From assembly GCF_021018805.1 (NCBI RefSeq), contig NC_086266.1, forward strand, positions 7,130,001 to 7,194,000: a stretch of 64,000 nucleotides of DNA, given 5' to 3'. The position numbers were made by a program, and so were the translations under genes. Shown piece by piece: positions 9,021 to 47,600 of the stretch (position 1 is its first letter; every line of letters begins with the position of its first letter). The notes beneath the pieces are model-generated. The model ran no database searches, was not told the origin of the DNA, and saw nothing but the letters and a program-made list of their open reading frames with translations. This DNA is from Prinia subflava. Lineage: Eukaryota; Chordata; Aves; Passeriformes; Cisticolidae.

Positions 9021-9021
9021 C

Positions 9022-9520: not shown

Positions 9521-9689
9521 GTCGAGGCCCGGGATGCGCCCCAGCCCCGCGGCTCCTCTGGCGGGGCGGGCCAAGGCCGCCGGGGAGGCCCGGGGAGGCG
9601 GTGGCGGAGGAGGCGGAGGCGGCGAGGGGAGGGCAGGGCTGGGCTGAGCCGTGCCGGGCGGGCGGGAGAGCGAGTGACACCTGGGCGGC

Positions 9690-9862
9690 TGCGCTGCCTC
9701 CTCCTCCTCTCACGTAGGTTTCGACTTTCTTCCCCGCCCGGAAACTTGGTGGAGGCGCCGCGCTCGCCGCTGTCGCAGGCCGGCTTGCCGCTGGGCTTCC
9801 AGCGCCTCTTCCCTCCCCGTCCCGGGGGCGAGCGAGCCCATTCCCGCCCCCGGCGGCCGCAG
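9690..9862 (+). other. LNX3: Probable non-coding first exon of LNX3
   Basis: The right edge is set by the consensus donor at 9863 (GTGAGCGG). The left edge (transcription start) is a guess within the CpG island. LNX genes have 5' non-coding exons, and coding begins in the next exon at 22196, which starts with a clear acceptor at 22164. Joining the two would give an intron of 12.3 kb. No transcript evidence is available here, and further small 5' exons could exist in between. Confidence 0.4.
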
Positions 9863-10120
9863 GTGAGCGGGGACGGTGAGGGGGTCCCGTGAGGGGGTCC
9901 CGCCGGGACCGAGGGACGTGGGGAATGAGGAGGCGCGGGGCTCCCAGCGGGCTGAGGTTTCCCGAGGGGCTCGGGGTGTCCCGACCGGCCGAGCGCGGGA
10001 GTCCCTTCAGGGGCTTGGGGGGGGGTCCCACCGGGGCTGAAGGGATGCGGAGTCCCTTAAGGGGTTCGGGGGGTCCCGCGGAGCTGAGGGAACGCGGGGC
10101 TCCCTGAGGGGACGCGGGGT

Positions 10121-10214
10121 CCCCTGAGGGTCACGGAGGTCCCTGAGGGTCTCGGGGGTCCCCTGAGGGTCTCGGGGGTCCCCTGAGGGTCTCGGGAGTC
10201 CCCTGAGGGTCTCG
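10121..10214. repeat. 20-bp tandem repeat in CpG island
   Basis: The unit CCCTGAGGGTCTCGGGGGTC repeats head to tail in exact 20-bp register from 10141. A diverged copy precedes it and a partial copy ends at 10214. It shares the CCCTGAGGG core with the 9.0-9.5 kb array, so both probably come from the same local expansion process or carry the same AP-2-like motif. Confidence 0.9.
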
Positions 10215-22195: not shown

Positions 22196-22584
22196 ATGGC
22201 TGACCCCGTCCCTGAGGAGAGCGTGTCCCAGGCCCCCGAGCTGTGCTGTGAGTGTGGCCAGGCACACCCCTTGCTGGACAATCACCTCTACAACTTCCAG
22301 GACGAGGTGGACGACGAGCTCATCTGCCACATCTGCCTGCAGCCCCTGCTGCAGCCCATGGACACGCCCTGTGGGCACACGTACTGTTTCAAGTGCCTTG
22401 AGAACTTCATGCAGGAGTACAGCTTCTGTCCCATGGACCGCAAGAAGCTCTCCTTCCAGCAGTGCCACAAGTCCAGCCTCCTGGTGAGGAACCTGCTGGA
22501 TAAGCTGCTGGTGCTGTGTCCCTTCAAGGCCGAGTGCCAGCAGACCATGCAGCGCTGTGAGCTGGAGGCTCACCTGCAGAACAG
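22196..22584 (+). CDS. LNX3: LNX3 coding exon 1: RING and zinc finger start
   Basis: This exon encodes residues 1-129 plus two bases of R130. The RING ligands are C44, C47, C59, H61, C64, C67 and C78, with D81 at the eighth place; Asp there is also seen in LNX1 and LNX2. An upstream CxxCG motif (C17-C20) and the [13 protein letters not shown] stretch are LNX hallmarks. Zinc-finger residues C108, C114 and H126 follow. The donor is ACAG then GTGCGT at 22585 (phase 2). Confidence 0.93.
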
Positions 22585-25500
22585 GTGCGTTCCCTTTCCA
22601 TCCTGTTATGGCCGGGGCTGTCGTGCTGCTCGTCAGAACCAGCCATTCTCAGAGCAGCTCCTGAACTGGGGCAAGGTGGGACTCCAGGGATGGCAGGGTG
22701 AGGCTGCAGAGGTGGGTGGTGAGGACAGTGTAATTGTGTGTGTGCTCTGGAGGAGAAGTTTCTTATGGAGAAGAGCTGCTCACCTTCAGGCCATCTGCAG
22801 ACACTAAACCTGTCAAACACCCAGACATTTGTGGCTCCGGAACTGGGGCACCAGCTCTGGAGCTGTTAGAAGCAAGCTTATTCTTGTTTCCCTTGTGCAG
22901 AAGAGAAAGGCACAGAGTCAAGGCTCTGAGAGCAAGGGATTGTGCAGTGCTGCCAGTTTAATTGGTCCAATTAAGATGTGCAATACATAAGTCTTTGATT
23001 CAAATAGTGCAAGTCCCTCCAAGCTGCACATTATGCACTTGCTGAATCACCTACTTATAATTCCATTATCTTCTCTCATTCTTTTGCTGAGAAAGAAAAG
23101 CAAATGAAAATTCCTGTGTTTTTTTCTGTTCCACTTGTGTAGAGGAAGGGAGACTTCTGGTGCTTCACTGCAGGTTGAGCTGTGGGCAGGAAGAATATTG
23201 TCACTTTAAAAGGAGTGCAGGTGACAGAGCTCTGGTGTGGTGTGTGGAGAACCCTTGTTCCTACCTGGTTAATTATTTCCAGGGAACGGAACTAAGTGCA
23301 AGCCCTGCTGCAGGTGGAACAGACCTTCCCTGGCAGGGTGTATTTATCAGCAGTGAGAAATGCCACGGCCTTGTTTCATTCAGCTGTGTTGTAGTTTGTT
23401 GTGGCAATGATATATTTTAAAAATAAGCCAACCAGGGAACAGGTACACTTAGGGTACCTTTGCAGCTGCAGCCAAGGATGTACCCTTGTGGTTTTTGCTT
23501 GTCTTCAGTCCCCATGAGCTGAGAGCTCATGTTAGAACCAGGGGAAGGGATGGAAGGAGCCTGGGTGCCCCTTTCCCCTCAGTGAAAGTTGATAATCTCC
23601 TTTTTCTTGAAGCAGCCCTTTGTCCTGGCTACTGGTTCCAGGCTGCAGGGCTGGGGCCGTGGCTCACACCAGGGCTGGCCCTTCCTGTGCTCTGCAAATC
23701 TGCCCTGCTATCAGTAAACTCCTGTCCCTGGTAATCCGTCTGGCACAGGAGTTACACACAGGGGAGAGAGGGAGGCTCCTCCAGTGTTTACATTAGAGAC
23801 CTGCCTGGAAACTGTATCATTCTCTTACATATTCCACAGTTGTTTGTATCTTTCTTGGGGACAGAGTACTCGAAGATTGGAGGCTATTTCACCTGGGCTG
23901 TGGGCGCAGTCAGACTGGAAAATAGGGGAGGAAAAAACCCCAAAAAACCCCCACAAAAAACCATAAAACAAAATAACAAACAAACAAACAAAAACCACAA
24001 AAACAAAACAAAAAACCAGATAAGAAATTTGCCCTGGGATTTGGGTGTTTTCTTGTTTAAAGTGAGAGTAACTGATAGGAGAAGATTTAAGGAAATAAGA
24101 AGCACATAGTGACTTATTTTCTTGGGGGATTTCCCTGCTATTTGCAAATTGAATTTGTGTTTTGGTATCTTAGGAGGGGCATGTGCACAAGTGGATCATT
24201 CATTTTCTGTCACTAAGTTCAAGGTTATTTTACTGCTTGGAGAATAAATGAGTAGGAATAAACCAGAGGCAGTAATACTGGGATAAGACTTCTTTAGCCA
24301 GAGTGTAAGTAGTTCAGTTTAATTTGAAAAATGACTCTGATAAACACCCAATACTTATATCTCTGAAAGTGATGTTTTTGCATTTATCACCTTCTTGCCT
24401 GTCACCTTTTTTTATAAATAGTTGTGATAAAAGAGCTGTTCTTCCTCACCTGTTAATACCAAGGCAGGTTGGTGATGTATCTGCATCCAGGGCACATTTT
24501 GTGTGTACAATTACATCCCAGTTCTGGGATCTTTGTGGGAGCACTCAGCGGGATTAGGAGTTAAATTGCTCCCATTCAGGTAGAGCCATCACCTGCATGG
24601 ACTGGGCGTGCACCAGGTCCAGGGTCAGGTCTCATTCCACAACAGAAAATGCCCAATCCTCCCTTGCTGCCCTTGTGTGTTGCTGGTGTGTTAAAACAAA
24701 GCCTAATTCAAGGCTGAGCTTGAAACTTGAGCCACTTCCTTTGCATCAAGGTACAGTTCACAGGGATCTGTACAACGTCAGAGCTCAGTATTTGCTTCTA
24801 TTTAAGAAGGGTTTTTTCTTCATGGAATGTTTGCCAGGTAAATATTTAGCAAGGGAGACTCCTGTTTCTGTTATGTTCTTCTTTTTCAAATAATTTGCTT
24901 AATAATTTCAAAAGTAGTGAAGTAACAAGCCAGCACTTAAGCTGGTACTTGTACACATAGAAACTGAAGGTCAAATGAGAATCAGTTTTATCATCTGAGA
25001 AACCAGCTCTGCACTGGTGAGATCTGGAACCAGCTTCTTCTCAGGGTTTGTCAGAGCTTTCATGTGCTGGGTCACCTGCCCAGGCAGAGCCTTCACTGAC
25101 AGTCCCTGCCAATCTCTCTCCAGGTGTCCTGGGTTTAAGAAATACAAATCTGAACTGCAGAGGAAGAAGAATCCCATTTCCAAAGGGAAGGAAGATCCTC
25201 CTGCCAGGGGGGAGGCAAACACGCCCAAGGATCCAGAGGTCCTGAGTGGAGGCTCCTCACTTGTGGCAGAAAGCTCCGGAGCTGCTGTGGTGTCACTGGG
25301 CACTGCCGAGCCTGGACTGGTTAATCCAGCTTTTGAGGAGACTGAGGAAGGTGAGAGTTCAGTACAGAAATGTATTTACCTTTGATAATATACAAATGAG
25401 GCAGTTATCTCAGAAAATTCAAATTTTAAGTGTCCCCAGCACTGTCAGACATCCTTAATACCACTCAGCCATTAGTAGCCATCCCTTCCTTGAGCAGAAG

Positions 25501-28500
25501 GGAGATGCATTCATGTGCAGCAGGGGTGGCAGAGTCTGCTCACAAGCACAGAACTGTACAAAACCATTTGGAGAAACTCTGTGAGATTGCAGTATTTGCA
25601 GTATTCTGTGGAGAAACAAAGGCAGTCCCTGTCAATGTGAACATCGAGCACTTAAAGCCCTTGCAGAAGCCAGATAATTAGTAACTAGGAAGTGTTCCAG
25701 GTTCTTTTTAATCTTGTTAGGAAAGTTAAATATACAGTCAGTTTCCTGGAGGGGTCAGTACCTCCCTCCTGGTGTTTTTCTAGCATAAGTTAGGTTTTGG
25801 ATTAACAGGCAGCTCTGAAAGCCTTGCAGATCACATCACCATCTCCACTCCAGTGTAGCAGCCCTTGTCTCAGCTTGGTAGGAGGCAGCAGCGTGGAAAC
25901 CTCAGTGCCTTGTCTCAAAGTTAGGCTCAGCTTCCACCCCCTGTGCCTGGGACAGAGGTAACTCACAGGTCAGTTCAGTTCCCTGTTGGCTTTTTCCCAA
26001 AGCACACCTGGAGCAGGTTTTGCATCCCTGTGTGACACCTGCCTTTCACCCTGCTGGGCCTGCCTGAGTGTCCCTGTGCTGGAGATCTCAGCCCGCTTGC
26101 TAACAGCAACTTTCATCTTCAGAATGCAGCATTGCTTAATCTCCAGAATGCTGTGAAACAGCCAAACATTCCTCCTGTTTTACAGGGGGGATGGGAAGAG
26201 GGGACCAAAGGAAATTAGAGGAAGGAAGTTGCAGAGCAGTAATTACAGCTGGGTAGTCCCTTTCCCTCGTGGGCATCATGGAAACTGGAATTTGTTGTGT
26301 GCGTGTTTCTAGCAGGCCAGCTGTCACAGGAGAAAAATAAATCTCTAAATATAGCCAAACCATACTGAATGTCTTTTAATAAACCCCAAGCAACACCAGT
26401 AAGGAGTTTGAATTCACCAAAAGCTAGGAGAAAATGGGAAAAATTCTGGAGCAGCTCTAAAGAAAGAAAAGAGGTTTAAGCTTTTTACGTGACCTTAGTT
26501 CTCCTGATAGCTGCTTTCCCTCCAGATGCTACACTGAACACAACCTGCCAGGGGTTTGAACCTTGGGGTGCTGTGAAAAGGAAACTTCTGTTACTGTGTT
26601 TCTTTTTCTCTTCAATTTCCACAAGCAGACCTTCCTCAGAGAACCAGTCTTGTGGCTGAAACTACCACCATCGAAATCCACCGGGAAGATCCTGAGGAGG
26701 AGCTGGGGATGAGGATAGTTGGGGGTAAGGACACCCCCCTAGGGAACATCGTTGTTCAGGAAGTGCTGCGGGACTCTGTGATTGCTGCTGATGGAAGAAT
26801 TGCTCCTGGAGACCACATCCTTGAGGTAGGGAACCCCCCTGGTGGCCCCATGGCTTCCCTTGACTGCGGGAGGAGAGTGCCTGGAAGAACTGGGAAATCT
26901 CTGCAGCTGAGGGTTCAGAGCACTGATCAACCCTCTGTGTCAGCAGCATTGTGAGTCTGCTGGGGCTCAGGAACACTGCTGGCATTCCTTCCAGCCAGAC
27001 TCGCATTTCTCTTGCATATTTGACAGCTTTTTGAAATTTGGGCCATTTTGGATAAAGTAAAAGATTCCTGCCTGACAGATTTCATGCAGCAGCCCCATTT
27101 CTCTGCTCTAGTTAGGAAGTCTCTTAATTGCTTGTTCCACTGTGTTGCTTAAGCTGCATATTCTCCATGGGCAGGTCCAGGGTGAGAGCTGCTGGCTGGC
27201 AGTGAGTGTCAGCTCCAAAATGTGAGTAAACGCAGAGCTGCAGCCCCAGCCCAACCCACAGCCAGGGCACTGCCCACACTGGCAGGGCTGTGAGGCCCTG
27301 GGTGACCGAGGTGACACCTTGTACACACAGTGACAACACTTAGCACCTCCAGCCATGGCTGCCCAATCATCTGCCAAGCCACAGATCCTCGTTATCCCAT
27401 GGGACTGGGCATCAGGAAGGGCTGGCAGCCCCCACACACCAGTGGCTGATGAGATCTCCGAGTTGGTTTCTCAGACCAGTGGAGTGACTCCTGTTTTATC
27501 CAGCTGGGTGTCCGTGTCTCAGTCTCAGCAAACAGGACAGGGCCCACCCTTAGGAGACCTGTTAACATCCTAAAAGGCTGCACAGAATCTTGTGTGACAA
27601 CAGGCAAAGCAAAGTGTTGCCTTCTCAGAGTCACCCTGGTGAAACCATAATTAGATGGATGATTCCAGAAGCTTCCAGAACCACTCAAAAGTGGAGATTT
27701 GGGACTTCTCCAAGCCTGTACTGAATGCTGGAAATAAAGGAAAAGCAGATCTGCATTTCCATGGCATGGAAGGAATGACTGAACATTTCTAGATTTGTTT
27801 GTTGTGCTGGTTGTCTTGTCTTGTCCCTGTGCTCAGCTATTCACCAATTATAGTCTAATTCCATCAGGTTTCTTCATTCTTTTTTAGAAAACTTTGCTCC
27901 CTAATGTGCCTCAGAGTCAGAGAATTGCACAGGGAGTTTTCCATCCTGCTGAAGCCTGGCCATGCCCCACGCTGTGGACAGTGCCTAATTAATGTGGGCT
28001 CTGATTAGTGAGTGCTTTGTTTGTCTTTGTAGGTGAATGGCGTCAACATCAGCAGTGTGACTCACTGCCAGGCTGTCTCCTTCCTGCGCCACCCAGGGCC
28101 TGTTCTCCACCTCATGGTCCTGCAGGAGAAGGGCTTTTCCAACAAGAGTGCCCAGCAGGACTCTGCAAGCCGGGAAGTGATCCACGTCACCCTGGTAAAG
28201 AGAGACCGATCTGAGCCCTTGGGAATCAAACTGATCAGGAAGACTGATGAGGCAGGGATTTTTATTCTGGATCTCTTAGAGGGAGGCTTGGCAGCCAAGA
28301 ATGGGAAGCTGAGTCGGAATGACAGAGTGCTGTCAATAAATGGCCAGGATCTGAGGCAAGGAACTCCTGAGGCTGCTGCCCAGATAATCCAGGTGAGTTC
28401 ATGGAGAGGCTGTGTGGAGATGGCTGTGAGTGGCTGATGGCAGAGCTCCTGTTCTGAGCCAGGGCTAACAGAACACACCAGGGCAAGCTGCATCCCCCAA

Positions 28501-31500
28501 ATCTCTCTCATGGAAAGTGATTCCCTTCTGGATGTGTGGGAAGCACTGCTTCCAAATGAGGAGAAACACCAAGAGTGGGAATCTGTGGTGAGTCACCCTG
28601 ACAGGTCTGAGGGGAAGCCGTGGCTCATGGAACAGGAGTTCATCTGGGGAGACTGCATCTCCTGTGGGGTGTTTGCAGCCTCTCAGCCTTGCAGAGGCAA
28701 TGGTGGATGCACTGTGTGGATTCCTGCAGCAGACAGGGAGGGATCAGGGCAGCCTCTTGTGCTTCCAGCAGTCACACTGAGGGTGCTGCTGGGAGATGGG
28801 ATGGGCTGGCAGCACAGAACAGATCCCTTTGGACTGATTTGAAGCCATTTCTCCCCATTTTACCTGTATTTATGAAGAGAGACTGGAAAACGACCTGAAA
28901 ACATTCCAAGGTACTAAATGGGTAGAAGAGGGGTGGTCTTTCCCTGTGGAATGTGCTCCTGTTGCAGCATGCCAGAGGTTTTGGTGGAAGGAGTGGGCAA
29001 GGAATTCTAGTTAAAGGATTAAGGACTGCTGCATGTACAGCAGATATCACATAGATCAGTTTAAATTCTTTATCTCCCCAGGCGAGTGCCTCCACTTTGT
29101 GTTTTTATCTACAGATCCCGACACAATGCACCTCATCCCACTCTGTTTATGTCCCAGAAAGGATGTGAGGTCAGCAGGAGGGAGAGTTCTCTTCACAGTT
29201 ATCAGAGGAGTGCAGTGCCATGGGAGAAAGAGCAGAGTTCCAGCACTGAGGTCCTTTTTCATGTTGTGCTTCCGTTCTGCGGCCTCTTAGAATTTGTTTG
29301 CATCCCACAAGTGCTGCTGCATTCCTGCTGCAATGTGCACACACAAATCCCATACGAGGAACTCTTTTGATCCCACTGGAACCAGCAACCAAAGTCTCAG
29401 GATTGGCTTCAAGAGGTTTGATTGAATCTCTTTGGAAGTGATATTTGTGTAAAACTGCAACAGTTTTCCAAAATGGTATTTGTGTAAAACTGTGACAGTT
29501 TTCCAAAGTGATATTTGTGTAAAACTGATGGTTTTCCAAAGTGATATTTGTGTAAAACTGCGACAGTTTTCCAAAGTGGTATTCGTGTAAAACTGTGACA
29601 GTTTTCCAAAGTGATATTTGTGTAAAACTGATGGTTTTCCAAAGTGATATTTGCGTAAAACTGTGACAGTTTTCCAAACATGGTCTGTTCCTGAGGGCTA
29701 ATTGAAATCCTTGCTTAAGTGTAACTTAAAGAGTCCCTGTTCCAAGGCCAGGGAATTCTCTCTGCAGGGAGCAGGGTCCTGTGGCAAGGAGTGAGAGCAG
29801 CAACTGCATTTCTGTCATCCGAGGCAGGAAACGCCCCTGAGCACGTGGGCCTTCCCCAGTGAGTCCTTCACAATAAGGTTCTGTCAGGTGATCTGAAGGA
29901 ACAAACTGGAGGAGAGCAGCAGGAACAATGGGAGCACTTCCCCTGCAGCCCTGCCAAGGCCAGACCCGCAGCTGGTGAAGTGTTTAACCAGAGGCACTCT
30001 GGGGAAAAAATGGATGGGAGATGGTGAACAATAGATGAACAAAGCTGGGAGGGAAAGAGCTTTAACAACTTCCCGTGCAATAAAAGCATCCAGTGCTTGT
30101 CATGGCCACTGTGTGTGCACCAGCCAGGGTTCCAGCTCTGCTCATTCTGTAGCTGTTTTGGTTGTTTGTACCCAAGTGCAGAATTAATCATCCCTTTCCA
30201 CCTTCTCTTGTTTGGTGTTTGTGGGGGAGGGAGGCACGAGTGAAGAGTGAAGGCTGCCTCTACTCCTGTTCCTTCTGACTCACGTTTGCTAATTGCCTTT
30301 TTTCCCAATCACATCCCCTGGCTCATCACAGGAGACTTTGCATCACACTGAGGACCTGTTGGAGAACCTCTGCAGGAAATGATGCCAGCCCTCCTCTCTC
30401 CCCAAGGCAATGAGCGCTGTCCTTCTTTTCTAACCCATTTTCTGTCTCTAATTTCCACTCCTCGTTTCTCTGGGCAGACCACGGAATCCAGAGTGAACTT
30501 TGTGATCCTGAGGCAGCCTGGGGTGCAGCTGGGGGAGCCACTGGAGGATGGCAGCACCTCCAACAGCAGCAGCAGCAGCAGCAGCAACGGGGGGAGCCCA
30601 GTGCACCACCGGAGGAGACCGGACCAGAACCACTACAGACGGAAATCCAACTACCAGAAGGTGGGGCTGGAACATGAGGCCAAGGTGCTGCTTGTTCCTG
30701 GTTTAGTAAATGCACTGAGTTATTCTGTGATGGTGTTTTATCTCAGAACACTCATCAGCAGCTCCATTTCTGCTCGGGCAGGTTTGGGGGTTTTGGTACT
30801 GAAGAACCACTTTGTCATCTATAGGGAAACATGATTTTAAGGGAAAAAGGTAACAAAATTTCTTCAGTGTTAATGCAGAGCTGGTGTTTAATGCTTTGTT
30901 GTCTGGAAAAGGCAATGAGAAATTTGCCATCCATGAGATTTTTTGGGGATTTGTTTCTTGACGTCCATCAAGCCCCACACGCTGAGGGTGTTGCAGTGAC
31001 ACCCAGCTGAGCTGGTGTGGAGCCAGGGGCCTTTGTGGCCCAGGAGAAGAATCCCCAGGTGGCCCTGTGCTGCTGCTGTGACTGCAGTGTGGCTCTGCCA
31101 CCCCTTTGTGGGGCACAACAAACAGCAGGAGCAAGAGGACAATCCCCAGTGTGCTGAACCCAGAGAGAAAACCTGTGTGTAGAGCTTCCAGCTGAGTGAC
31201 AAGGCTGCTGCAGCTGCTGAGTGCTGTGTTTCAGTGTCCCTGGAGCTCAGGGAGTTGCTGTCCTGTGTGGCTGGAGTGTGGTTCCTGCATTTAAATCCCT
31301 GAGTAGCATTTACACCCTGTTGTACAGCCTGTGCTCTAATGTGTGCCTTCATTGCAACCTAAACATTCAGTCAGGGAGAGTTTCATTGCTTGAGATGAGC
31401 TCATCACTTGTTCCTCAGTGCCAAATTCCCCTCCTCAGAAGGGGCATCTCCCTACAGCAGATGGATTTGGGATCATGAGGACAGCACTGACGGGTCACCT

Positions 31501-34500
31501 CAGAAATGCTGCTCTGGATTCCCACCCACAGCAAGGACATGGGAAGCTGACTTTGCCCTCCAGCAACGTTGCTGGAATGCTCTGAGTGAAGGAGACAAAT
31601 GTTGTCTGCCAGAGCTGGGCTTTTCCTGTTAAATGCATTAATGGAGCTGCATTTTGTGCTGTCATTGCTTCGTAGGATTTGCCTCAGGGATATGTAAGTC
31701 ATGAGAAGACAGTTGCAATAAAAAAGGAGCCAAAGGAATCTTTGGGAATCACAATTGGAGGTGGAAGGGATAACAAAAACAAGCTCCCTATCTATGTGAC
31801 AAGTGTGCAGCCCATTGGATGCCTCTTCAGGGATGGCAGAATCAAGAGAGGTAAGGGGGGCTCTCAGACCCTTTATCCTTCAGGAACTGTGGGGTATTTT
31901 CAATGGAAGAGGCCCTGGGCACTAAAGAGAGGCTGGAAACAGGGCTGCCATGACCCTGGGGGCTGAAATGGGCTCCACAGCCAAAGGTCTGTAGTGGTCC
32001 CACTCTGTTTCACCAACAGGGGATGTACTCCTGAGCATCAACGGCATCGATCTGACACATCTCAACTACTATGAGGCTGTGTCAGCACTGAAATCCAATG
32101 CAGCTTCCCACTCAGTCACACTGAAAGCTTTGGAGATCCTCTCCCTGAACTGCCCAGAGCCATCCCTGGACATCAGGGAGCAGGGATTCAGCTGGGCTCC
32201 CCTCTGGATCACGTGGCTTGGACTGCCCAGGTATGTTTGTCAGGGACTAGATGGATGGCTGTTAATTACAGGGTTGACTTTCACTCAAACACTAGAAATT
32301 AATTACTTTGTTGATGAACTTGGAAGCATTCCTGGTATTCCCGTTTAGCTGAAAGGCAGTGGAAAGCCTCATTTGCCAATGAGATCATAGAATAATGAGT
32401 ACATAAGGAACTTCCACTGTTTTTCTGGAGTGACCCATCATTCCCACACTCATGTTGGACACTATCCATGCTTTAGAAGCCCTGAAACTCCCTTTTTAAG
32501 AGACAAATAGTCCATGTTAGATACATCCTTGCTAAAGTACTGACTGAAATCTCCTGTGGCTCTTTCTGCATCCCCTAACACAAGCCAAGAGACACCTGGG
32601 CTGTCTGGGAGTTTCTAATCTGATCATCTCACTTAGGGGCAGACATTCTTTCAGTCTAACTCTTCTTGGCTGTTGTAACTGTGTCATCTTCAGCATGAAG
32701 CAGAAATGATTCTGCACAGTTGTGTTTTCCTGCTGCAAAGCTTTGCAGCACAGGCTTGGCACAGGTTTTAACCTAGGAAGTTCCAAGAGAAGCTTGAATT
32801 TCCCTCTCCTTCCTGGAGAGGTGAACCTCTGGCTCCCACCCTTCAGCATTTAGATCAAAACACTGTGAAAGGCAGTCTGGTGTCATCCCAGCTGCCTGCA
32901 GGAGCATCTGCAGGTGGAGCCAGACCTGCTGTGGGAAGCCTGGATCATTTACAGCCTTGTTCCTTGAGACACCTAAAGAAGAACCACTCACAAAGGCTCT
33001 GTTGTGTTACTTAGCAGACTGTAAATGCTCAACAGACCAGCCCAAGGAAAGGCAGCTTTTGTGTCTGCTGTGCTTGGCCTGTGCTCAGCACCTCCTCCCA
33101 TCTCCCTCTGCCTGCTCCAGGCAGGTCTGGTGTGAGCTGGCCCTGAGCTGCACCTGGAGAGCCCAAACCTGGGCACAAACCCCCAGATGCTGCCTGGTGT
33201 TTGTTCTTGAGCTGCTGCTGCAGTGAACTACAGCAAAGCAAAACCTGGCTGGGCCTCTTTTCTTCCTTTCCCCGTTTTTGTGGCTCTCAGGTGCCTTGCA
33301 GCTTCCCCACACTCTGCTGCAGGGACTGGGCTCTTCTCTGCTCCTGGATCTCCTGCCTTCATTTCAGGAGTGTCCTGACATTACCTGCACTTACTGCATT
33401 GCTGGGAAGTCCTTTGCTGCTGGTATTGATGTTCCCCTTCATTTGACTCCTGAAGTAAGAAGTGATTTCAGGTGCCCTTTCTGCTCTTCACTTTTTTACT
33501 CCAGCCTGAGTCCTGGCCTTGGAAGGTGTCTGCAGCTCTGGCTGTGAGGGTTGGCAGGATGCACACAGCAGGGTTATTCCACTTTGGGGTCTGACAGAAT
33601 GTTCCTCCTGTTTCCAGCACTGAAAAAGGCTGCCATTCCTGTGCTTCCTCACTCCTTTTCCCATCTGCTCCCAGTGAGTCCTGGTAGGCCCTGGCTGCTC
33701 ACCCAGAGCCTGTGTTTGTCCCCTGGGGATGTTCAGGGTGCCCCTGGCGCTCCAGGCTGGCTCAGGGAGGTCCCAGTGCCCTCACCTGCTGTGCTCTGGC
33801 TCCCATTGCAGAGGTCCTGACCCACCCAAACTGGGTTTGCTTTGCACAGGACCAAAGCCCCAGTGCTGCAGGGGATCGTCCTGTGGCCCTGGCAGAGCCT
33901 GTGTGCCCCACAGTGACACAGAAACCCCCAGAAATGCGCCCACACTGGAGCCAGCACCAGCTCTGCCACTGGGAGCTGCTCCTTTGGGCTGCCCTGGCCT
34001 CACTGGAATGTCCTGCAGGCTGAAAGCTCAAAGTTAATTGCACATGCAATTTTGGGTTTGTTCAGCTTCTTCCCCCTCAGTTATCTCTCTGCTCCAGCAG
34101 AAATATCTCTTTCTTTTTAGAGGAATGTGTTTCTCTCTAGTTTGATCCCAGACCTGATGCTGGAAGATGTGAGTTGAAATCAGTGCTCAGGGCTGGGGCA
34201 GTGTATTTGATCCTTGTAACTCTTGAGCTCACCGTGCTTCATTCCAGCCTTGATCCTTGTATCCCTGATTTCTGTTTCTGTCAAACAGAAACTTTGATTT
34301 CTTCCTAGCATTGTGTTAAATCCACGCCAGCCATAAAATCCATGTTAAATCCACTGCTAGCATAAAATACCATCTCACAATCTGCTGTGGACTGGGCCCA
34401 TGTTCTAATCCAATACACCCTGCATCCCAAAGGTGCCAAAACAAAAGCTTCCAGATTGATTTATCTTTTCTCTCAGAAACCTTTGTCTCTTGAAAACACA

Positions 34501-37070
34501 ATGCACAGTGGCTTGTGGAGAAGTCCTGGGGGTGGAAAAGCAGTTTTCCTGCTGCCCTCTTCCCTGGGGTTTATCTGCCTCCACTCTGACACTTCCACAA
34601 CAATGTGGAGCTCCCAATCCCTCCCCGCTGCAGCTCCCAGCTCCAGCAGGGACCAGGAACTGCCAGCTCAGCAGCGTGCTTGGCACCATAAAACCTGCAC
34701 CTCGACCTTCCCTAAACTCTCCAGTTCTTTTCCCACAGTCATTTTTGGTGGTAATAAATTAAAGTTTCTCTTCCTAGAACCCCTTTTTAAGATGGAAAAG
34801 GGATTCCTAGCAAACAGCCCTTTCCAGCTCCTGGAGAACGTGCCCCATGTTTTTATTTCTGCCCTGTGCTGACGCAGCCTTGCCGCTGTTGCTCTTGGGG
34901 CTGCTTTTTTGCAGAAGCTGCCACAGCCATGGCTCAGAGCTGTGTTTTTGCACTTGTGTGGCACCTGTGGAGGGAAACCGTGCAGGAATCTGTAAGCTCG
35001 AGCTGGGTCTCCTGGTGTTTATGTGTGAAAAACTCCAACAAAAGTAAATTACAGTTTGAAAGTAGATAATTGGATCTTTCTCTTGGTGAGAAGTTAACTG
35101 GGAAGGCTTTTGAAATCTGAAACTCCGCTGCAAACTGCTCAAGCAAAGCCCTGGAGGCAAAAACGTTTATTAGGAACAGTTTAGCTGCTGGAAGAGCTCA
35201 GCGGGGTGATGATGAGCAGCAGCTTCACAGCTCCGCGGTGCCAGGATGTAACCTGAGCTGGAGCCGGCCTGGGAGCCGGGACACCAGACGCTGCTGCCAC
35301 ACCTTGTGTGTCACCTGGCCAAGCTCCGCGGGGCTCCGTGCCACCAGCTCGGGCTGCTGGCACTGCCACCCCACACTGCCCGGGCTCCCCGAGGAGACAA
35401 ACGGCGCTGGCTGGCATCCAGAACCAGGGAGCTCCACCACGGAGCCCAGGATTGGAACGGGACATCCTGGAGCCCGCAGGATTCCCTGCTCTCCTCTGCA
35501 GCTGCTGCAGCTCCCATTTGCTGCCAGCGATGCTGAAAACCTTCCTCGTACCAGTGCCGTGCACAGAGGGGATAAAACCCTCTACTCTCACTGATTGCAC
35601 GGGTGTAGCTGCTGCTCTCTGTTAATTTGGGTTTGTCACCGGTGCTGTGGGGGTTCATTAGCAGAATTCACAAAGTTATTCAGGAGTCTTGCAGGTCCCA
35701 AATCTCTTTAGAGCAGGGTGATTTCCTCTTAGCTCTTAAAACAATACTCAGATTTCTAAAGGACTGGCATCATCTCATTTGAGAATTAACCCTGTGACAT
35801 GCCTTGCAAAGGGGTGTCTCAAATCCAAAAAACAGGAGAAAGGCTGTTTACAGCTGTGCTTTCCATGAGGGAAAACATAAACTCCTGCTCAGGCAATTTT
35901 CCTCATAATTTCTGTTTTTGACACAGCTACCTTCACTTCTGTCAAGACGTTGTCCTCACTAAAGGAAACCTGGAGAGTTGGGGCTTCAGCATCGTGGGAG
36001 GCTTTGAGGAAAGCAAAGGAAACCAACCCTTCTTCATCAAAACCATCGTGCCCGGGACTCCGGCATTCCGGGACAGGAAACTCAAGTAGGTGTGAGGTAC
36101 CCGGGGAATCATCACCCGCGGCTGGGGGGTTCCCAGGCTCTGTGACCCTTGGAAGGAGCTCAGCTCCAAGTTAATGACTCTGTCTGGCACTCATTCGAGC
36201 GTTAATACTGCTGCCAAACTTGTAACAAACTAAGCCCTGCGTTAAGCAGTGTTTGGTTTCTTCATAAAGGTGCAACGAAAAGGAATTTACAGCCCTTTAA
36301 AACCTAACTGTGAAGGGTTTAATTAAGTAATCAGGTAAAAGTAGAATGGGGATATTTGAGATTAATTTTGGAGGTTCCAGAGTATAAAATCTCTTTGATT
36401 AGGAAAAGTGTCCCAGCACAAGCACCACATGCCCTCCTGCAGGACCCGTAACTGGAGTTTGCTGACTGTTGGTGGTCCCAGTGAGAGGAGCAGGGGGGCT
36501 GCAGGAGCCCACAGGCATCCCCGGGGGGGCTGAGCTGGCCCCGAGGGCTGCCACAGGCACTGCGGGGGACACAGCTCGGTGCGGGGAGCTGGGCTCTGCC
36601 CCAGAGCCCAGCTGGGCTCCTGAGGCTGGGACAGGCTGTGGGGCACAGCCCCGCTCCCCTCCCAAGGGGCTGGGTGTGCCTGAGGGGGGCAGGCCCCTCT
36701 CACACCTCGGATGGCCGCGGGAGAGCAGCTCTGAGCGGGGCTGGCAGTGCTCTACCAGCACAACCCTCCCTGCTGCCCCTCAGTGCTGCCACCCCAGCAC
36801 CAGCAGGGTTCTCCCTTCCCTCTGCCTCAAGGGAAAAAGTGCTTTCGAGGAGGAGTTGATTTGGCTCAGGGTGGGCACAGGGTTAATGCAGGGTTAATAA
36901 TGAGCCCATCCTGACTGGATCTGTCTTTGGGCAGGTGTGGAGATGAAATCGTGGCAGTGAACGGAGTGCCAGCAATAGGAATGAGCAACTCGGAATTAAT
37001 CCCAATGCTGAAGGAGCAGAGGAACAAAGTCACCCTGACCGTGGTGTCGTGGCCAGGGAGCCTCGTGTGA
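22196..37070 (+). CDS. LNX3: LNX3, RING and four-PDZ E3 ubiquitin ligase (9 coding exons)
   Basis: The joined CDS is 22196-22584, 25124-25350, 26629-26825, 28033-28392, 30478-30660, 31676-31850, 32020-32230, 35927-36085, 36935-37070: 678 codons plus TGA, all GT-AG and in frame. LNX1 is 728 aa and LNX2 690 aa in human. Domains in order are RING (44-81), TRAF-like zinc finger (108-131), NPAF (197-200), PDZ1 (~217-304), PDZ2 (~318-402), PDZ3 (~463-551) and PDZ4 (~588-672). LNX proteins ubiquitinate Numb and other PDZ partners in the cytoplasm and at junctions; this role is inferred here. The sequence is nearer LNX2 than LNX1, but the neighbour is a FIP1 gene, as for LNX1. The best fit is the third ohnologue, Lnx3, protein-coding ancestor of part of eutherian XIST. 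The name LNX3 is also an alias of PDZRN3, a different gene. Confidence 0.88.
22585..25123 (+). other. LNX3 intron (2.5 kb)
   Basis: The intron holds an A/C-rich simple stretch at 23934-24018 and nothing else recognisable. Its first 200 bases stay open in frame but show no LNX homology. Confidence 0.7.
23934..24018 (+). repeat. A/C-rich low-complexity tract
   Basis: Runs of A alternate with C clusters and with AAAC repeats (ACAAACAAACAAAC core). This is simple sequence inside an LNX3 intron, possibly the tail of an old retroposon. Confidence 0.8.
25124..25350 (+). CDS. LNX3: LNX3 coding exon 2: zinc finger end, NPAF motif
   Basis: This exon encodes residues 130-205. C131 completes the TRAF-like zinc finger. 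A poorly conserved basic and serine-rich linker follows, then EPGLVNPAF (192-200). The NPAF matches the LNX2 version of the Numb-binding NPxY/F motif (NPAY in LNX1). The acceptor follows TCTCTCTCCAG and the donor is GTGAGA at 25351 (phase 1). Confidence 0.9.
25351..26628 (+). other. LNX3 intron (1.3 kb)
   Basis: I see no gene, repeat family or RNA element inside. Confidence 0.65.
26629..26825 (+). CDS. LNX3: LNX3 coding exon 3: first half of PDZ1
   Basis: This exon encodes residues 206-271. TTIEIHRED opens PDZ1. The carboxylate-binding loop reads ELGMRIVGG, and [16 protein letters not shown] is the standard PDZ core that runs into the next exon. The acceptor is ACAAGCAG and the donor is GTAGGG at 26826 (phase 0). 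Confidence 0.92.
26826..28032 (+). other. LNX3 intron (1.2 kb)
   Basis: I see no recognisable gene or repeat. It ends in TTTGTAG before 28033. Confidence 0.65.
28033..28392 (+). CDS. LNX3: LNX3 coding exon 4: PDZ1 end and most of PDZ2
   Basis: This exon encodes residues 272-391, exactly 120 codons at phase 0 on both sides. [11 protein letters not shown] completes PDZ1. PDZ2 starts near REVIHVTL (318), with binding loop PLGIKL (333-338) and the [14 protein letters not shown] and NDRVLSING segments, close to LNX2. The donor is GTGAGT at 28393. Confidence 0.93.
28393..30477 (+). other. LNX3 intron (2.1 kb)
   Basis: The intron contains the 36-bp hairpin-unit satellite at 29440-29680. I recognise nothing else. 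Confidence 0.7.
29440..29680 (+). repeat. 36-bp tandem repeat with hairpin in each unit
   Basis: About seven units of AAGTGATATTTGTGTAAAAC plus a short second half form the array. Full 36-bp units contain AAAACTG-NNA-CAGTTTT, a perfect 7-bp inverted repeat with a 3-base loop. Two shortened units keep only AAAAC-TGATG-GTTTT. The long and short units alternate in part, suggesting duplication of a multi-unit block. Confidence 0.92.
30478..30660 (+). CDS. LNX3: LNX3 coding exon 5: PDZ2 end and polyserine linker
   Basis: This exon encodes residues 392-452, 61 codons at phase 0 on both sides. [12 protein letters not shown] is the last PDZ2 strand. The linker to PDZ3 contains seven serines in a row (421-427) from an AGC trinucleotide run, then a basic [14 protein letters not shown] stretch. 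This linker is the least conserved part of the family. The donor is the less usual GTGGGG at 30661. Confidence 0.88.
30661..31675 (+). other. LNX3 intron (1.0 kb)
   Basis: I see no gene or repeat inside. Confidence 0.65.
31676..31850 (+). CDS. LNX3: LNX3 coding exon 6: first half of PDZ3
   Basis: This exon encodes residues 453-510. [20 protein letters not shown] carries the PDZ3 binding loop (SLGI), and [23 protein letters not shown] the core. Both are close to LNX2. The acceptor is CTTCGTAG and the donor is GTAAGG at 31851 (phase 1). Confidence 0.93.
32020..32230 (+). CDS. LNX3: LNX3 coding exon 7: PDZ3 end and linker
   Basis: This exon encodes residues 511-580. [20 protein letters not shown] and SVTLKALEI finish PDZ3. 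The linker ends in [12 protein letters not shown], the counterpart of the conserved WSPSWVMWL segment before PDZ4 in LNX1 and LNX2. The preceding intron is only 169 bp. The donor is GTATGT at 32231 (phase 2). Confidence 0.92.
32231..35926 (+). other. LNX3 intron (3.7 kb)
   Basis: This is the largest intron inside the coding part. Segments such as 33060-34030 and 35220-35600 are GC-richer, but no exon, repeat family or RNA gene can be supported. A CATAGAAT motif at 32387 hints at an old CR1 end but is too short to call. Confidence 0.6.
35927..36085 (+). CDS. LNX3: LNX3 coding exon 8: first half of PDZ4
   Basis: This exon encodes residues 581-633. [20 protein letters not shown] holds the PDZ4 binding loop (WGFSI), followed by [16 protein letters not shown], nearly identical to LNX2. 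The usual DGR turn reads DRK here (629-631). The donor is GTAGGT at 36086 (phase 2). Confidence 0.93.
36086..36934 (+). other. LNX3 last intron (0.85 kb)
   Basis: GC-rich at 36470-36800. I see no coding signal or repeat family. Confidence 0.6.
36935..37070 (+). CDS. LNX3: LNX3 coding exon 9: PDZ4 end and stop
   Basis: This exon encodes residues 634-678. [20 protein letters not shown] and [19 protein letters not shown] complete PDZ4; the C-terminal SWPGSLV is close to the LNX2 end. TGA is at 37068-37070. Confidence 0.94.
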
Positions 37071-41519: not shown

Positions 41520-41652
41520 TCACTCCTTGGTGTCCTGCTCCTCGCCCTCCTGCGCCCCGTCCTCGCTGGCCTCCTTCTCCTCCTTGCTGCGCTTGTTCTT
41601 TTTGTGCTTGTGGCGCCGGTGGCTCTCCCCCTCCTCGCTCTCGTGCTGCTTC
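41520..41652 (-). CDS. FIP1L2: FIP1L2 exon 16: basic C-terminus and stop
   Basis: This exon encodes residues 521-564. [25 protein letters not shown] matches the FIP1L1 tail closely in character, then an acidic end. The Lys/Arg cluster looks like a nuclear-localisation and RNA-binding region. The acceptor is CCTGCCCAG. Confidence 0.93.
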
Positions 41653-44600
41653 CTGGGCAGGGACACAGGGGACAAAGGGACATCAGACACAGCCCTGCCA
41701 CAGCAGGGAGCCAGGGACGGGCACAGGGCTTTGATCCCAACAGCAGCACTGAGGGCACCGCAGGGGTTTTGTGATGCACCAGCACTGACACTGCCACTGT
41801 CACACTGTCACACACTGCTACTGCCACACACTGACACTGTCACACACTGCCATGCCCACACACTGCTACTGTCACTGTCACACACTGCCACTGCCACACA
41901 CTGCCACTGCCACTGTCACACACTGCCACCGTCACTGTCACACACTGCCACTGCCACACCACTGCCACTGTCACACTGTCACACACTGCCACTGCCACAC
42001 AGTGACCCTGTCACACACTGACACTGTCACACACTGCCACTGCCACTGTCACACACTGCCACCGTCACTGCCACACACTGCCACTGCCACACACTGACAC
42101 TGCCACACCACTGCCACTGTCACACACTGCCACTGCCACACACTGACACTGTCACACACTGCCACTGCCACACCACTGCCACTGTCACACCACTGCCACT
42201 GTCACACACTGCCACTGCCACACACTGCCACTGTCACACCACTGCCACTGCCACACCACTGCCACTGTCACACACTGCCACTGCCACACACTGCCACTGT
42301 CACACCACTGCCACTGTCACACCACTGCCACTGTCACACACTGCTACTGTCACACACTGACACTGTCACACACTGACACTGTCACACCACTGCCACAGTC
42401 ACACACTGCCACTGCCACTGTCACACACTGCTACTGTCACACACTGACACTGTCACACACTGACACTGTCACACCACTGCCACTGTCACACACTGCCACT
42501 GCCACACCACTGCCACTGTCACACCACTGCCACTGTCACACACTGCCACTGCCACACACTGCCACTGTCACACCACTGCCACTGCCACACCACTGCCACT
42601 GTCACACACTGCCACTGCCACACACTGCCACTGTCACACCACTGCCACTGTCACACCACTGCCACTGTCACACCACTGCCACTGCCACTGTCACACACTG
42701 CAACTGTCACACACTTCCACTGCCACACACTACAACTGTCACACACTGACACTGCCACTGTCACACACTGCCACTGTCACTGCCACATACTGCCACACAC
42801 TGCCACTGTCACACACTGCCGCTGTCACTGCCACACACTGCTACTGCCACACACTGCTACTGTCACACAGTGCCACTGCCACACGCTGCCACTGTCACAC
42901 GCTGCCGCTGCCACACACTGCCTCTGCCACACACTGCCACAGGCTGTCACACGCTGCCACAGGCTGTCACACGCTGCCACTGTCACACGCTGCCACTGCC
43001 ACTCCTGGCAGTGTCCACAGGCAGTAATATCTCAGTGTTCTTCCACTCCCAAGCAGCTCCAACAATCCTGACACAGCTCTGAGGCTGAGAGGAGGAGTCC
43101 TAAACTCAAGATGTGTTTGGAACTTTCACTCCTCTCAACACGCAGGGGAAATCCCTGGACTAGAGGCAGCAAAGGGATCAGTGGAGCGAGAAAAATGTGG
43201 CTTCCCATGGGGCAGATCCTGTTTCTCCTGCTGACTCACACCTGACCTGGCTCTTTGCTGCCTTCGTGCTTTACAGCTCCTTTATCTCCCCCGGTTTTCC
43301 AGATGTGGGTGGGTAACCGGGGACGTTTCCCAGGATTTCTGTGATGTGGGAACAACCCCAGGCAGAAGAGGCCTGGGCAGGCCGTGCATGCCCTGAGCCT
43401 GTGCCCTGCCAGCTGCTCCCTGCAGCCAGCACAGCCCAGGAGCAGCTCTGCCTCCCAGCAGGAGAAGGGAGCAGCTTTTGGCCCCTGCTGGGAGGAGATT
43501 TTCTGCTGCTTCTCTCACAGGTTCAAACCAAGGCAGCTCCCAGGAGCTGACCGTGGTGTGAAGGTGGCAGAGTTAAAGCACAGCCCAGAGAACAGGAACA
43601 GGCAGATGAATTTATCCCAGGATAAACTGTGACTGTGCAGGCACAGCTCATGAGCAGAGACAGCAGCAGGTGTGCAGAACAATTCCCAGCACAGCTGGAA
43701 TTCCAGTTTAGCAGCAGACACAGAACTGGCTGAACCTGGCTGAAAAGCTCCTGGCTTCAAGTAATTTTCTGACTGGTTTAATAAATGGTTTCACAGTCAT
43801 TAAAGGCAAAAAAAAATAGGGAAAAATAAAAGGCTGCTGCCTCTCCACAAAACACCCTCAGCCACCTCGTGGCCAGTGTATCAGTGGTTTATGCTGGGAC
43901 AATGTCCTTTAATACTGAAACCAGCGTCAGTGATTTCCTCCAGACTGCTCAGGTTGCAGGAAGCTGGAAACGAAACCCTTTCATCTGCAGATGCCTCAAA
44001 CAGGCTCAAAGCCCAGCGTGCCTCAAGCAGGGAATCCCAGAATGGTTTGGGTTGGAGGGGACCATGGGCAGGATTCCTGCAGTGAGGTATCTACTCCAAG
44101 GTTCCAACTCTGAGCAGAGGAAGCTGAGAAATAACCCTAAAGCCAAGACTTGTTTGTCTGATACCAGCTCAGCTTCCAGTTGCTCTGTATTCAATTTTTA
44201 TTATGGTCTTAGTCTTTCTTCCTATCATTTTGCTTCCAACCCTTCAGCAATCAGTCCTTCCTTGAAAACTTACTCATCTCCTTAAGGACAGAAACAGCCT
44301 TTTTCCTCCAGTCATTACGTAGGAGTTTTTCTGATACCAGTTTCAAAACAAGGGTAATTACCTACAGACCTGACAGGAATTTCACCTAAAAGAAGGGAGC
44401 TGAAGCACCAAGAAAAAAAGAGCAAGAGCAAGTCATTAATGGGATGTGAAGTGAGACAGGACCTGAGCACAGAACCTGCCTCAGCTCAGAGAGCAGAGCT
44501 GCTGCTTTGCTGGGGACTGCTCTTCCAGGAGGATCATCTGTTGCAAATCCATTTTCTGCAGAAAAGCTGTGATTTCAGGACGTGCTGCTCTGCCCCAGAG

Positions 44601-47600
44601 GTTTCATTTTTGTGCAGACCATCACCCCCCTCACTATCAGGCTCTGGGCAAGAGCTCTGCTCCTGCTCAAGAGGCAATTTCTGAGTGCAGGCAGAGGAAA
44701 TTCTTCACAGAAAGAGTGACTGGGCATTGGAATGGGCTATGCAGGGAGGTGATGGAGTCACTGTCCCTGGAGATGTTTAAGGAAGGGCTGGATGTGGCAC
44801 TCAGTGCCATGGTGTAGGTGACAAGGTGGTGCTGGGTCACAGGCTGGACTCTTACAGGTCTTTCCCAACCAGACTGATTCTGTGAGCTCTGCCCTGGCGC
44901 ACAGGAGCAGCAGGACCAAAAGCCAATGCTCCTGTCATGGCCTTGCACCCCCTCTGTGTGTGCTTTGTTAAGATGGGAGCTCTGCTGGGAGCCTGAGCCC
45001 GGCTCCATCCCTCCTTCACCCTCCGAGTGCGAACACAACCCCGAGGTCCCCTTCCCCCATCCCAGCAGGCTCCTCCCGCCCAGGGCTCTGGGACAGCGGG
45101 AGCTGGGATGATCCAGGCTCATCCCAGCACGAGCAGGGGGAGCTCCTGCCAGCACTGACCTGCGGGAGGATTTGTGTTTGCTGCTGTCGTCCTTGTCGCG
45201 GTGGCGGCGCTCGCGGTGCCGCTCCTCGCGCTCGCGGCTGCGGTCGCGGCTGCGCCGGTAGTCGCGCTCGAAGTCGTAGCTGCGCTCGCGGCTGTAGTAG
45301 CGGTACCGCTCGTCGTCGCTGCGGGGACAGGGACACAGGGACACAGGGACACGGCCCCAGGCCTGAGCACTGTGCAGGGCTGCTCTCCCCAGCAGCCCCC
45401 AGCTCCTCTCACTGAGCAGGAATGCGGCCACACGCTGCTCTCATCGCGCTCCCTCCCGCTGCTGCGTTCCCCTCGGCACACACTCCCCACACGGCCTCTC
45501 AGCCTCTTGTGGAACGGGCTCTTTTCCTCCCCACAAGCTCAAAAGCTCAAACTGTGAGCACAGCGTTCTGTCTGCACCTCTCTACCCGCTCAGAGCGCCT
45601 CATTCAATCCCCAGGAGGGGCAGGGTGAACCCCAAACTGAGACACATCCCACACTCCCCTCTACACCCCCCTGGTCAACTCCTGAAAGCCAAAATCAAAG
45701 GGTTAACAAGTCCCTCTGTGGGAACAATACTCAGACTTGGGAGAAAGCAAGTCAAGAGACATTGTTCTGACACTCCTGGAAACAAAGCTGGGCAAATAAA
45801 TGTCCAAGATCAATCAGCTGGGCGTGCTCCAAAGGACTGCATGGCCACTTGCCCTGCTTTGACCTGCACCAGGGTGCTCCACACCTCCCAGAAATGCCAG
45901 CAATGTGCTCAGGAGTGCTGAACCCAGGCCTTGGCTCCAGCATCGACCAGGAAGTGGGAGAGTCTGAGCTCTTCCACTTTTAGCAAGTTTGTCTCCTGTT
46001 CTCTTTCCCCCCCGTCCCATTCACAGTGCCCAAAAGCTTATAAAGGAAAAAAATACATTAAGAGCACACTGCCCTGTTTGCTCCCTCCCTGGGCTGGGAA
46101 GCTCCCTGGCAGGAAGTACCCTGTGCCAGGAATGCACATTCTGATCATGTTTTGAATGATTATTGGCATTTCTGAGCCCAGAGCCTGCGAAACAGCGACA
46201 CTGCTGCTGACTGAACACCAAAGGGATGGATTTGGGAAGCCTCTGCGGCCCAGCCTCCACCTCAGATCAACACATGGAGGCTCCAAGCCCCCTGTCCTTT
46301 CCCAAGTACTCTGTCACTGCTGTCAGCCGAGGTCACAGCAGCTCCCACCAAGGTGGTCTCTCCAGCCCTGCTCCCATTTCCTGGCTGACTCCCAGGGAAT
46401 GGCACTCCCAGCCCCACAGGAAAAGCAGAGCAGGCTGTTTGTCCTTTGATCTGACAGTGACATTTAGAAGACAAGAAGCAGCAGCTCCTACAGCCAGTGC
46501 TTCACACCGAGCTGTGAAACACTGAGTAAACACAGAGGGGCTATTTCATTGACTGGCCTCGTGGGAGAGCAAGAGGAACTGGTTCTGCCGGATTTAAACA
46601 ACAAAAACCCCAGACCCCAAGAGAGGAAATCAGCCAGTGACACTGCTCCGGTCTGTGCTGTAGTTATTGACGCAAAGGAGCTCTTCCCCAGCCATTCCAG
46701 GGAGTCCAGCTGGTGTCCTCTATAACCCAGCCCTCGGCCAGGCTCGCTGGGTGCCCGGCAGCAGGGCAGGAGGGCAGCACTCACTTGTTGTATTCACTGG
46801 TGGTGGGGGTGCGGTCGCGGTCCCGCTCGCGCTCCCGGTCCCGCTCCCGCTCGCGGTCCCGCTCCCTGTCCCGCCGGGAGCCCGAGTATTCCCAGTGGCT
46901 GCTGCTGGAGCTGCTCGTGCCCTTGTCCACCGTGGTCACCCAGGGCGTGTGGGACGTGGAGATGGGGGGGTAGCTGATGAAACCTGAATCTGCAGGCAGA
47001 GAGCAGAACCCTCCGTCATCCAGAGCATGCTTGGGACCCCCTCTGTCCCTCCCTTTCCGAAGATCCCCTCTGGCAGCAGAGCTGGATCCAAGGAGGCAAT
47101 GGCCCAGCTCCCTGCTGTCCTTCCCTTCACTTCCAGTTCACTAAGAACAGGAACTCCTTCTCCCCGAGGGAAGCACAGGATCAGGCATTTACAGGCAGCA
47201 CTGCAGGGTCTCTGTCAGCCCTGGGCCCTTGGTCACCTGTCCCACCAGGTACCTCCTGCTCTAGGGTGGCACCTGGGGAAGCCCAGGGACACCAGCTGCC
47301 GGTGAAGGATGTCACCTGAGGAGCCCAGAGCCACCAGCATCTCCCTGGCAGAGGTGGCCAGCTGGAGCAGCAAGGTCGTATCCAAAGCAGTGCCACATCT
47401 GGCAGCACTGGAGGCTCCTCTCCTTGGGAAGGGCTGGCACTGCCACTCCTCCAGCCCTGCCCTGCAGGCCCTGCAGGGCTTCCTGGGCTTCCAGAGGGAG
47501 CCACTCGTGGTCACCACAGCACTGGGAGAGAACTGGGGCTGCACCAGGGAAGGGAAATTGCTGAAATCCCAGCACTGCCTCTCCTGTTACAAAACCGCAG

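What the first reader, a model, noticed from the sequence alone, without database searches (positions are those of the whole stretch)
22196..37070. Intact, protein-coding LNX3: the avian counterpart of the gene that became part of XIST
The gene encodes a full RING plus four-PDZ protein of 678 aa with nine in-frame coding exons. It differs from both LNX1 and LNX2 and sits tail-to-tail with a diverged FIP1 gene. Published work (Duret et al. 2006, Science; Elisaphenko et al. 2008, PLoS ONE) describes Lnx3 beside Fip1l2 in non-eutherians, and derives some XIST exons and its promoter region from Lnx3. All four PDZ binding loops, the zinc ligands and the NPAF motif are present, so nothing suggests decay in this lineage.
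Basis: partly seen in the sequence, partly recalled or inferred. Interest (0 to 1): 0.9.

Follow-up and report, generated by a model that had tools for sequence, protein, structure and literature searches.

The report
Songbird counterpart of XIST's ancestor gene
The stretch holds a complete, apparently working bird copy of LNX3, the protein gene whose remains became part of mammalian XIST; this was already known from chicken, so it is ordinary for a bird, although a neighbouring pair of caudal homeobox genes looks unusual.

Summary
The protein falls in the LNX3 (= LNX2B) clade with shark, coelacanth, amphibian, reptile, monotreme and marsupial proteins, apart from the same genome's LNX1 and LNX2 (100/100). 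The gene order is the published proto-XIC order: WASF4, USPL, RASL11C, LNX3, FIP1L2, CHIC1, CDX4. The best Rfam match in the window is Xist_exon4, inside LNX3 coding exon 3 (30.2 bits, E 0.023, below the gathering score of 100). LNX1 and LNX2 exon pieces of the same genome give no such match. The genome is most likely Prinia subflava. This agrees with published work on chicken, so it is a further ortholog of a known gene. The XIST promoter claim could not be tested. In passing: CDX4 lies beside a second, old CDX4-type gene of tetrapods, and in several species the first exons of the two look homogenised.

The parts
22196..22584 (+). LNX3 coding exon 1: zinc finger, RING, zinc finger
25124..25350 (+). 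LNX3 coding exon 2: linker with the NUMB-binding NPAF motif
26629..26825 (+). LNX3 coding exon 3: first part of PDZ1; the exon that matches XIST exon 4
26633..26754 (+). Match to Rfam RF01881 Xist_exon4, model 1-126 of 126, 30.2 bits (gathering 100), E 0.023
   Evidence: no such match in 14 LNX1/LNX2 exon pieces
28033..28392 (+). LNX3 coding exon 4: end of PDZ1 and most of PDZ2
30478..30660 (+). LNX3 coding exon 5: end of PDZ2 and serine-rich linker
31676..31850 (+). LNX3 coding exon 6: first part of PDZ3
32020..32230 (+). LNX3 coding exon 7: end of PDZ3 and linker
35927..36085 (+). LNX3 coding exon 8: first part of PDZ4
36935..37070 (+). LNX3 coding exon 9: end of PDZ4, C-terminal SLV, stop
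9201..10600 (.). CpG-rich stretch with GC-rich minisatellites; candidate LNX3 promoter (inference only, no transcript evidence)
41520..62806 (-). FIP1L2, tail to tail with LNX3; ends read by me from translations, several exons recognised with a recalled FIP1L1, gene not fully modelled
62201..63900 (.). CpG island at the 5' end of FIP1L2

Best explanation
The window holds the intact, protein-coding LNX3 (LNX2B) gene of a songbird, most likely Prinia subflava, in the ancestral proto-XIC gene order. Shown here: the gene structure, the domains, the orthology, the gene order, and a nucleotide match of coding exon 3 to the Rfam model of XIST exon 4. Inferred: the protein is a RING-type E3 ubiquitin ligase whose PDZ domains and NPAF motif choose its targets, such as NUMB, as described for the family. 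In zebrafish the ortholog Lnx2b degrades Bozozok and holds down cdx4; CDX4 and its twin start about 57 kb beyond the LNX3 stop here. Whether it acts on CDX4 in birds is unknown. In eutherians the same gene lost its coding role and some of its exons persist in XIST (published).
For: Gene model with GT-AG junctions throughout. Domains. Full-length relatives in birds, reptiles, amphibians, monotreme, marsupials, lobe-finned fish and sharks (120 of 1219 hits listed). LNX3 one side of a 100/100 branch in a 26-row tree. One LNX3 locus among the 65 of 97 candidates scored in the assembly, with LNX2 and LNX1 elsewhere. Gene order. Xist_exon4 match with paralog and flank controls. Zebrafish function from passages of PMC7373230; XIST derivation from parts of PMC2430539; chicken and frog Lnx3 expressed in both sexes according to PMC12101419 (passage).
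Against: The Xist_exon4 score (30.2) is far below the family's gathering score (100). In the control search on 4.5 kb of paralog exons an unrelated family (SNORD23) reached E 0.084 by chance, so E-values near 0.02 are not strong by themselves. The exon does not fold better than its shuffles (z 0.01), so no RNA-level constraint is visible. No expression data for this species and no nucleotide orthologs were at hand, so constraint was judged from protein identity only. The published 'exon 11' of chicken Lnx3 does not fit my nine coding exons plus one upstream exon.
Confidence: 0.96

Rival explanations
1. It is LNX2 or LNX1, as the names given to its relatives in the databases ('ligand of Numb protein X 2', 'LNX2 protein') suggest.
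For: The closest relatives bear LNX2 names, and an LNX2 chain is the best PDB match.
Against: The same genome has separate LNX2 (C3, near another CDX gene) and LNX1 (C7, near the other FIP1) loci. The tree separates the three groups at 100/100 each.
Confidence: 0.01
2. It is an LNX3 copy that is decaying or no longer translated in this lineage.
For: No expression data for this species; eutherians lost the gene.
Against: All splice sites and the frame are intact. Of 24 differing alignment positions against zebra finch (2 of them a gap), none hits the NPAF motif or a PDZ loop, and 15 lie in linkers by my reading.
Confidence: 0.03
3. The Xist_exon4 match is chance or reflects a shared PDZ coding pattern rather than descent.
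For: The score is below the gathering threshold; a chance match of another family reached E 0.084 in the control.
Against: It is the best of 4227 families in 64 kb, covers the whole model and starts four bases into the exon. The next lowest E in bases 1-38000 is 0.88 against 0.014. The corresponding LNX1 and LNX2 exons give no Xist_exon4 match at E up to 10.
Confidence: 0.04

Closest known systems
Chicken Lnx3 (Elisaphenko 2008, PMC2430539, parts read; Duret 2006 known only through citing papers)
   Same: Protein-coding, flanked by Fip1l2, Chic1 and Cdx4 on one side and Rasl11c, Uspl and Wave4 on the other; an exon resembling XIST exon 4.
   Different: Another species; nine coding exons modelled here, while the paper numbers exons up to 11.
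Zebrafish Lnx2b (Lnx-like)
   Same: Flynn 2011 (PMC3162930, passages; author name recalled) treats it and bird 'LNX3' as one paralog, LNX2b; RING plus four PDZ and NPAF.
   Different: The known target Bozozok has no clear counterpart in amphibians, birds or mammals (PMC3162930, PMC7373230); function in birds untested.
LNX1 and LNX2
   Same: Same domain order; the exon junctions that could be compared fall at matching places by eye.
   Different: Separate clades, other loci, no Xist_exon4 match.
PDZRN3, also called LNX3
   Same: Shares the name LNX3 and the RING plus PDZ plan.
   Different: One or two PDZ domains and not known to bind NUMB (PMC7373230, passages); not in my tree.

Membership tests
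LNX3 / LNX2B | RING followed by four PDZ domains in one protein | tested here: met
LNX3 / LNX2B | NPAF (not NPAY) motif before PDZ1 | tested here: met
   NPAF at residues 197-200; LNX2 shares NPAF (PMC7373230), so this excludes only LNX1
LNX3 / LNX2B | Phylogenetic place apart from LNX1 and LNX2 | tested here: met
   16 of 16 LNX3 rows on one side of a 100/100 branch; LNX2 rows are birds only, LNX1 rows birds plus a recalled human one; Phascolarctos, Polyodon and Xenopus rows flagged as long branches
LNX3 / LNX2B | Proto-XIC synteny: WASF4, USPL, RASL11C, FIP1L2, CHIC1, CDX4 | tested here: met
   in 264 kb and mostly with recalled human paralogs as queries; SLC16A2 not looked for
LNX3 / LNX2B | Nucleotide kinship of one exon with XIST exon 4 | tested here: met
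   with negative control; score below Rfam's gathering threshold
LNX3 / LNX2B | Kinship of the 5' exons with the XIST promoter, and of other exons with XIST introns and exons | not testable with these tools
   No XIST sequence was at hand; none of the 14 Rfam matches in bases 1-38000 at E up to 10 is another XIST family
LNX3 / LNX2B | Absent from eutherians | tested here: inconclusive
   Of the 120 best of 1219 hits, 4 are named as mammals: echidna, koala (2) and Tasmanian devil; 5 rows have no name; the other 1099 were not listed
RING E3 ligase | Ubiquitin transfer activity | not testable with these tools
   RING and flanking zinc fingers align with LNX2 5din

The most novel reading that the evidence does not exclude
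The block around LNX3 also carries a second CDX4-type ParaHox gene next to CDX4, dating to early tetrapods and named 'CDX-1-like' or 'CDX-4-like' in databases. Its homeodomain and tail have stayed distinct, while in several species exon 1 has been made the same as CDX4's, probably by repeated gene conversion. Eutherians would then have lost a homeobox gene as well as LNX3 from the region that became the XIC.
Probability: 0.6. Interest if true: 0.6.

Novelty: already known. Interest (0 to 1): 0.3.

Why it matters
The locus is a clean reference for what the X-inactivation centre looked like before XIST: the six neighbours that I looked for are in the published order and the ancestor gene is intact. 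It gives one more sequence for testing which parts of XIST come from coding exons. The block also probably stayed on the autosomal half of chromosome 4A when the other half joined the sex chromosomes of Sylvioidea songbirds (inference from contig lengths).

Tried and rejected
Rejected: LNX1 or LNX2 identity; decay; chance as the cause of the Xist_exon4 match (with the reservations told); an RNA structure in the exon beyond chance (z 0.01, 97 of 200 shuffles fold as well). PF10256 for CHIC1 gave only two matches, on C29 and C9; CHIC1 was found with a recalled CHIC2 sequence. A plan to show the 4A/Z fusion in this genome through androgen receptor (PF02166, seven requests) and DMRT1 (PF12374, two) got no answer. 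Literature, open-licence papers only: Cdx4 with gene conversion gave 1 paper, not read; ParaHox, Cdx4, tandem duplicat and Cdx gave 5, none read; Cdx4, duplication, birds gave 12, of which passages of PMC4471637 and PMC7373230 were read. The passages of PMC4471637 count six human ParaHox genes and three Cdx genes in coelacanth and mention no second tetrapod CDX4. LNX3 with Sylvioidea gave none. These searches do not show that the CDX pair or the 4A point is unreported.
Full report
Observation. Nine coding exons between 22196 and 37070 (+) join with GT-AG junctions throughout into a 678-residue reading frame. Pfam reports four PDZ stretches and a RING. The NPAF motif is at residues 197-200 and the four PDZ loops are present. 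The RING region aligns with solved LNX2 and LNX chains.

Which gene it is. A protein search returned 1219 proteins, of which the best 120 were listed. The list is led by zebra finch (96% identical) and runs through other birds, turtles, alligator, tuatara, lizards, snakes, amphibians, echidna, koala, Tasmanian devil, coelacanth, lungfish, sturgeons, paddlefish and cartilaginous fish. The 4 of 120 rows named as mammals are not eutherian; 5 rows carry no name. Many are called 'LNX2' or 'LNX2-like', some 'LNX2b'. I searched the same genome with the zebra finch protein: 97 candidates, 65 scored, 33 matches, of which 9 are LNX3 on contig C20, 7 LNX2 on C3, 7 LNX1 on C7, and 10 other places. So one LNX3 locus was found; the search is a lower bound. 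A tree of 26 rows was built: 15 of the 120 rows, 7 of the 120 rows (4 LNX2, 3 LNX1, all birds), the window protein, two joined proteins of this genome and a recalled human LNX1. It puts 16 LNX3, 5 LNX2 and 5 LNX1 rows in three groups, each at 100/100. The koala, paddlefish and frog LNX3 rows were flagged as long branches. PDZRN rows and non-avian LNX2 rows were not included.

Gene order. The window is C20:7130001-7194000 of an assembly of 1.12 Gb. Around it lie WASF4 (7018780-7023426, +), USPL (7058739-7072189, -), RASL11C (7094871-7104218, +), LNX3 (7152196-7167070, +), FIP1L2 (minus, about 7171520-7192806), CHIC1 (7200338-7215894, -) and two CDX genes (minus, about 7223.7-7231.9 kb and 7240.6-7254.5 kb). 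Except for the CDX genes and the FIP1 motif, the places were found with recalled human paralogs, in 264 kb only, and the names follow from the order. The other FIP1 match is on C7, as is LNX1. LNX2 on C3 at 37.70-37.73 Mb lies near a CDX gene at 37.88 Mb. This is the order that Elisaphenko et al. describe for chicken and frog (PMC2430539, Results part 1 of 3 and Discussion part 1 of 2 read). A 2017 study (PMC5577775, passages) reports the same cluster, under LNX3 'aka LNX2B', in chicken, lizard, Xenopus, coelacanth and gar, with two paralogous clusters. Duret 2006 was not available and is known here only through papers that cite it.

XIST. Rfam has a model of XIST exon 4. Over the whole window and 4227 families it gives the best match, at 26633-26754 on the coding strand of exon 3: 30.2 bits, E 0.023. 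The score is well below the gathering threshold of 100. In bases 1-38000 the next lowest E of 14 matches is 0.88 against 0.014. The 14 pieces of LNX1 and LNX2 exons (counterparts of coding exons 1, 3, 4 and 6-9) give no Xist_exon4 match at E up to 10, though an unrelated family reached 0.084 there by chance. Seven of the 20 fetched flank pieces, 70 kb, give no match of any family at E up to 1. The exon is 197 bases long; XIST exon 4 is 209-213 bases in seven species (Table 1). With one untranslated exon upstream, coding exon 3 would be the 'exon 4' of the papers, but their 'exon 11' then has no place in my model. The exon folds no better than its shuffles. The promoter claim could not be tested.

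Species and chromosome. One of the CDX proteins is 100% identical to 'homeobox protein CDX-4-like [Prinia subflava]', listed with a contig of 8,985,111 bases, exactly the length of C20. Prinia is in Cisticolidae, Sylvioidea. The best LNX2 hit was Hirundo at 99%, but my LNX2 lacked linkers, which distorts those identities. In Sylvioidea the first 9.6 Mb of chromosome 4A joined the sex chromosomes, and the second half segregates autosomally in great reed warbler (PMC8662655, passages); 4A is sex-linked in all 14 Sylvioidea species of a 2026 study, among them Cisticola but not Prinia (PMC13333021, passages). The contigs listed for LNX3 or its CDX neighbours are 19.5 Mb in zebra finch and 19.7 Mb in Zonotrichia, but 9.0 Mb in Prinia and 9.7 and 10.1 Mb in blackcap. 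So LNX3 most likely lies in the autosomal half. This is inference; the marker searches did not complete.

How it works. By family knowledge the protein is an E3 ubiquitin ligase scaffold. Its zebrafish ortholog degrades Bozozok, acts on Notch signalling through Numb, and opposes E4f1 so that cdx4 stays repressed (PMC7373230, passages). It is notable that cdx4 is also its chromosomal neighbour, but no result here links the two in birds. A review says that chicken and frog Lnx3 are expressed in both sexes (PMC12101419, passages).

CDX pair. C20 has two complete three-exon CDX genes about 9 kb apart. Their first exons share a 441-base stretch at 96% identity. In a tree of the homeodomain and tail (45 rows: 45 of 120 hits plus copy B, less coelacanth) copy A forms one group of birds, reptiles, frogs, salamanders and caecilians (98/93); in a second tree with recalled human CDX1, CDX2 and CDX4 (28 rows) the group has 98/95 and lies on the CDX4 side. 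The A and B labels were assigned after seeing the first tree. In the tree of the part before the homeodomain (25 rows) the labels mix. Of the five species with both copies in it, three pair with themselves (Prinia 100/97, Cyrtonyx 99/95, Manacus 100/100), Rhinatrema's two fall in a caecilian group of three (94/93), and the two of the frog Ascaphus stay apart, against the general rule. Coelacanth fell out of all three trees because its sequence missed my search pattern. In species other than Prinia, annotation of one first exon for both genes could mimic the effect; in Prinia both exons were read from DNA.

Verdict. The gene is a further ortholog of a published case, so the interest is modest.

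Noticed in passing
G000:C20:7223500-7254560 (- strand), 30-60 kb beyond the window; loci L003, L004, L011-L015: Two complete CDX genes in tandem. Homeodomain and tail trees separate them as two old tetrapod paralogs, while first exons pair within species in Prinia, Cyrtonyx and Manacus (96% identical over 441 bases in Prinia) but not in Ascaphus, as repeated gene conversion would give. The second is named CDX-1-like or CDX-4-like in databases.
   Followed up: yes
contig C20 (8,985,111 bases): Contig length suggests that the proto-XIC block lies on the autosomal half of chromosome 4A left after the Sylvioidea neo-sex fusion; the other half of 4A became sex-linked.
   Followed up: partly
window 37070 to G000:C20:7223.7-7254.5 kb: CDX4 and its twin lie about 57-87 kb beyond the LNX3 stop; in zebrafish the LNX3 ortholog represses cdx4 (PMC7373230, passages). 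A link in cis has not been tested.
   Followed up: no
29436-29684: Minisatellite of 35-base units (103-base higher unit, 95% matches) in the intron after LNX3 coding exon 4.
   Followed up: no
9019-10214: GC-rich minisatellites of about 20 bases inside a CpG-rich stretch upstream of LNX3; long open frames there look like repeat translations.
   Followed up: partly
41783-43002, 53482-53854 and 63245-63646: Long minisatellites in two FIP1L2 introns, and a 65-base repeat (95% matches) by the FIP1L2 CpG island.
   Followed up: no
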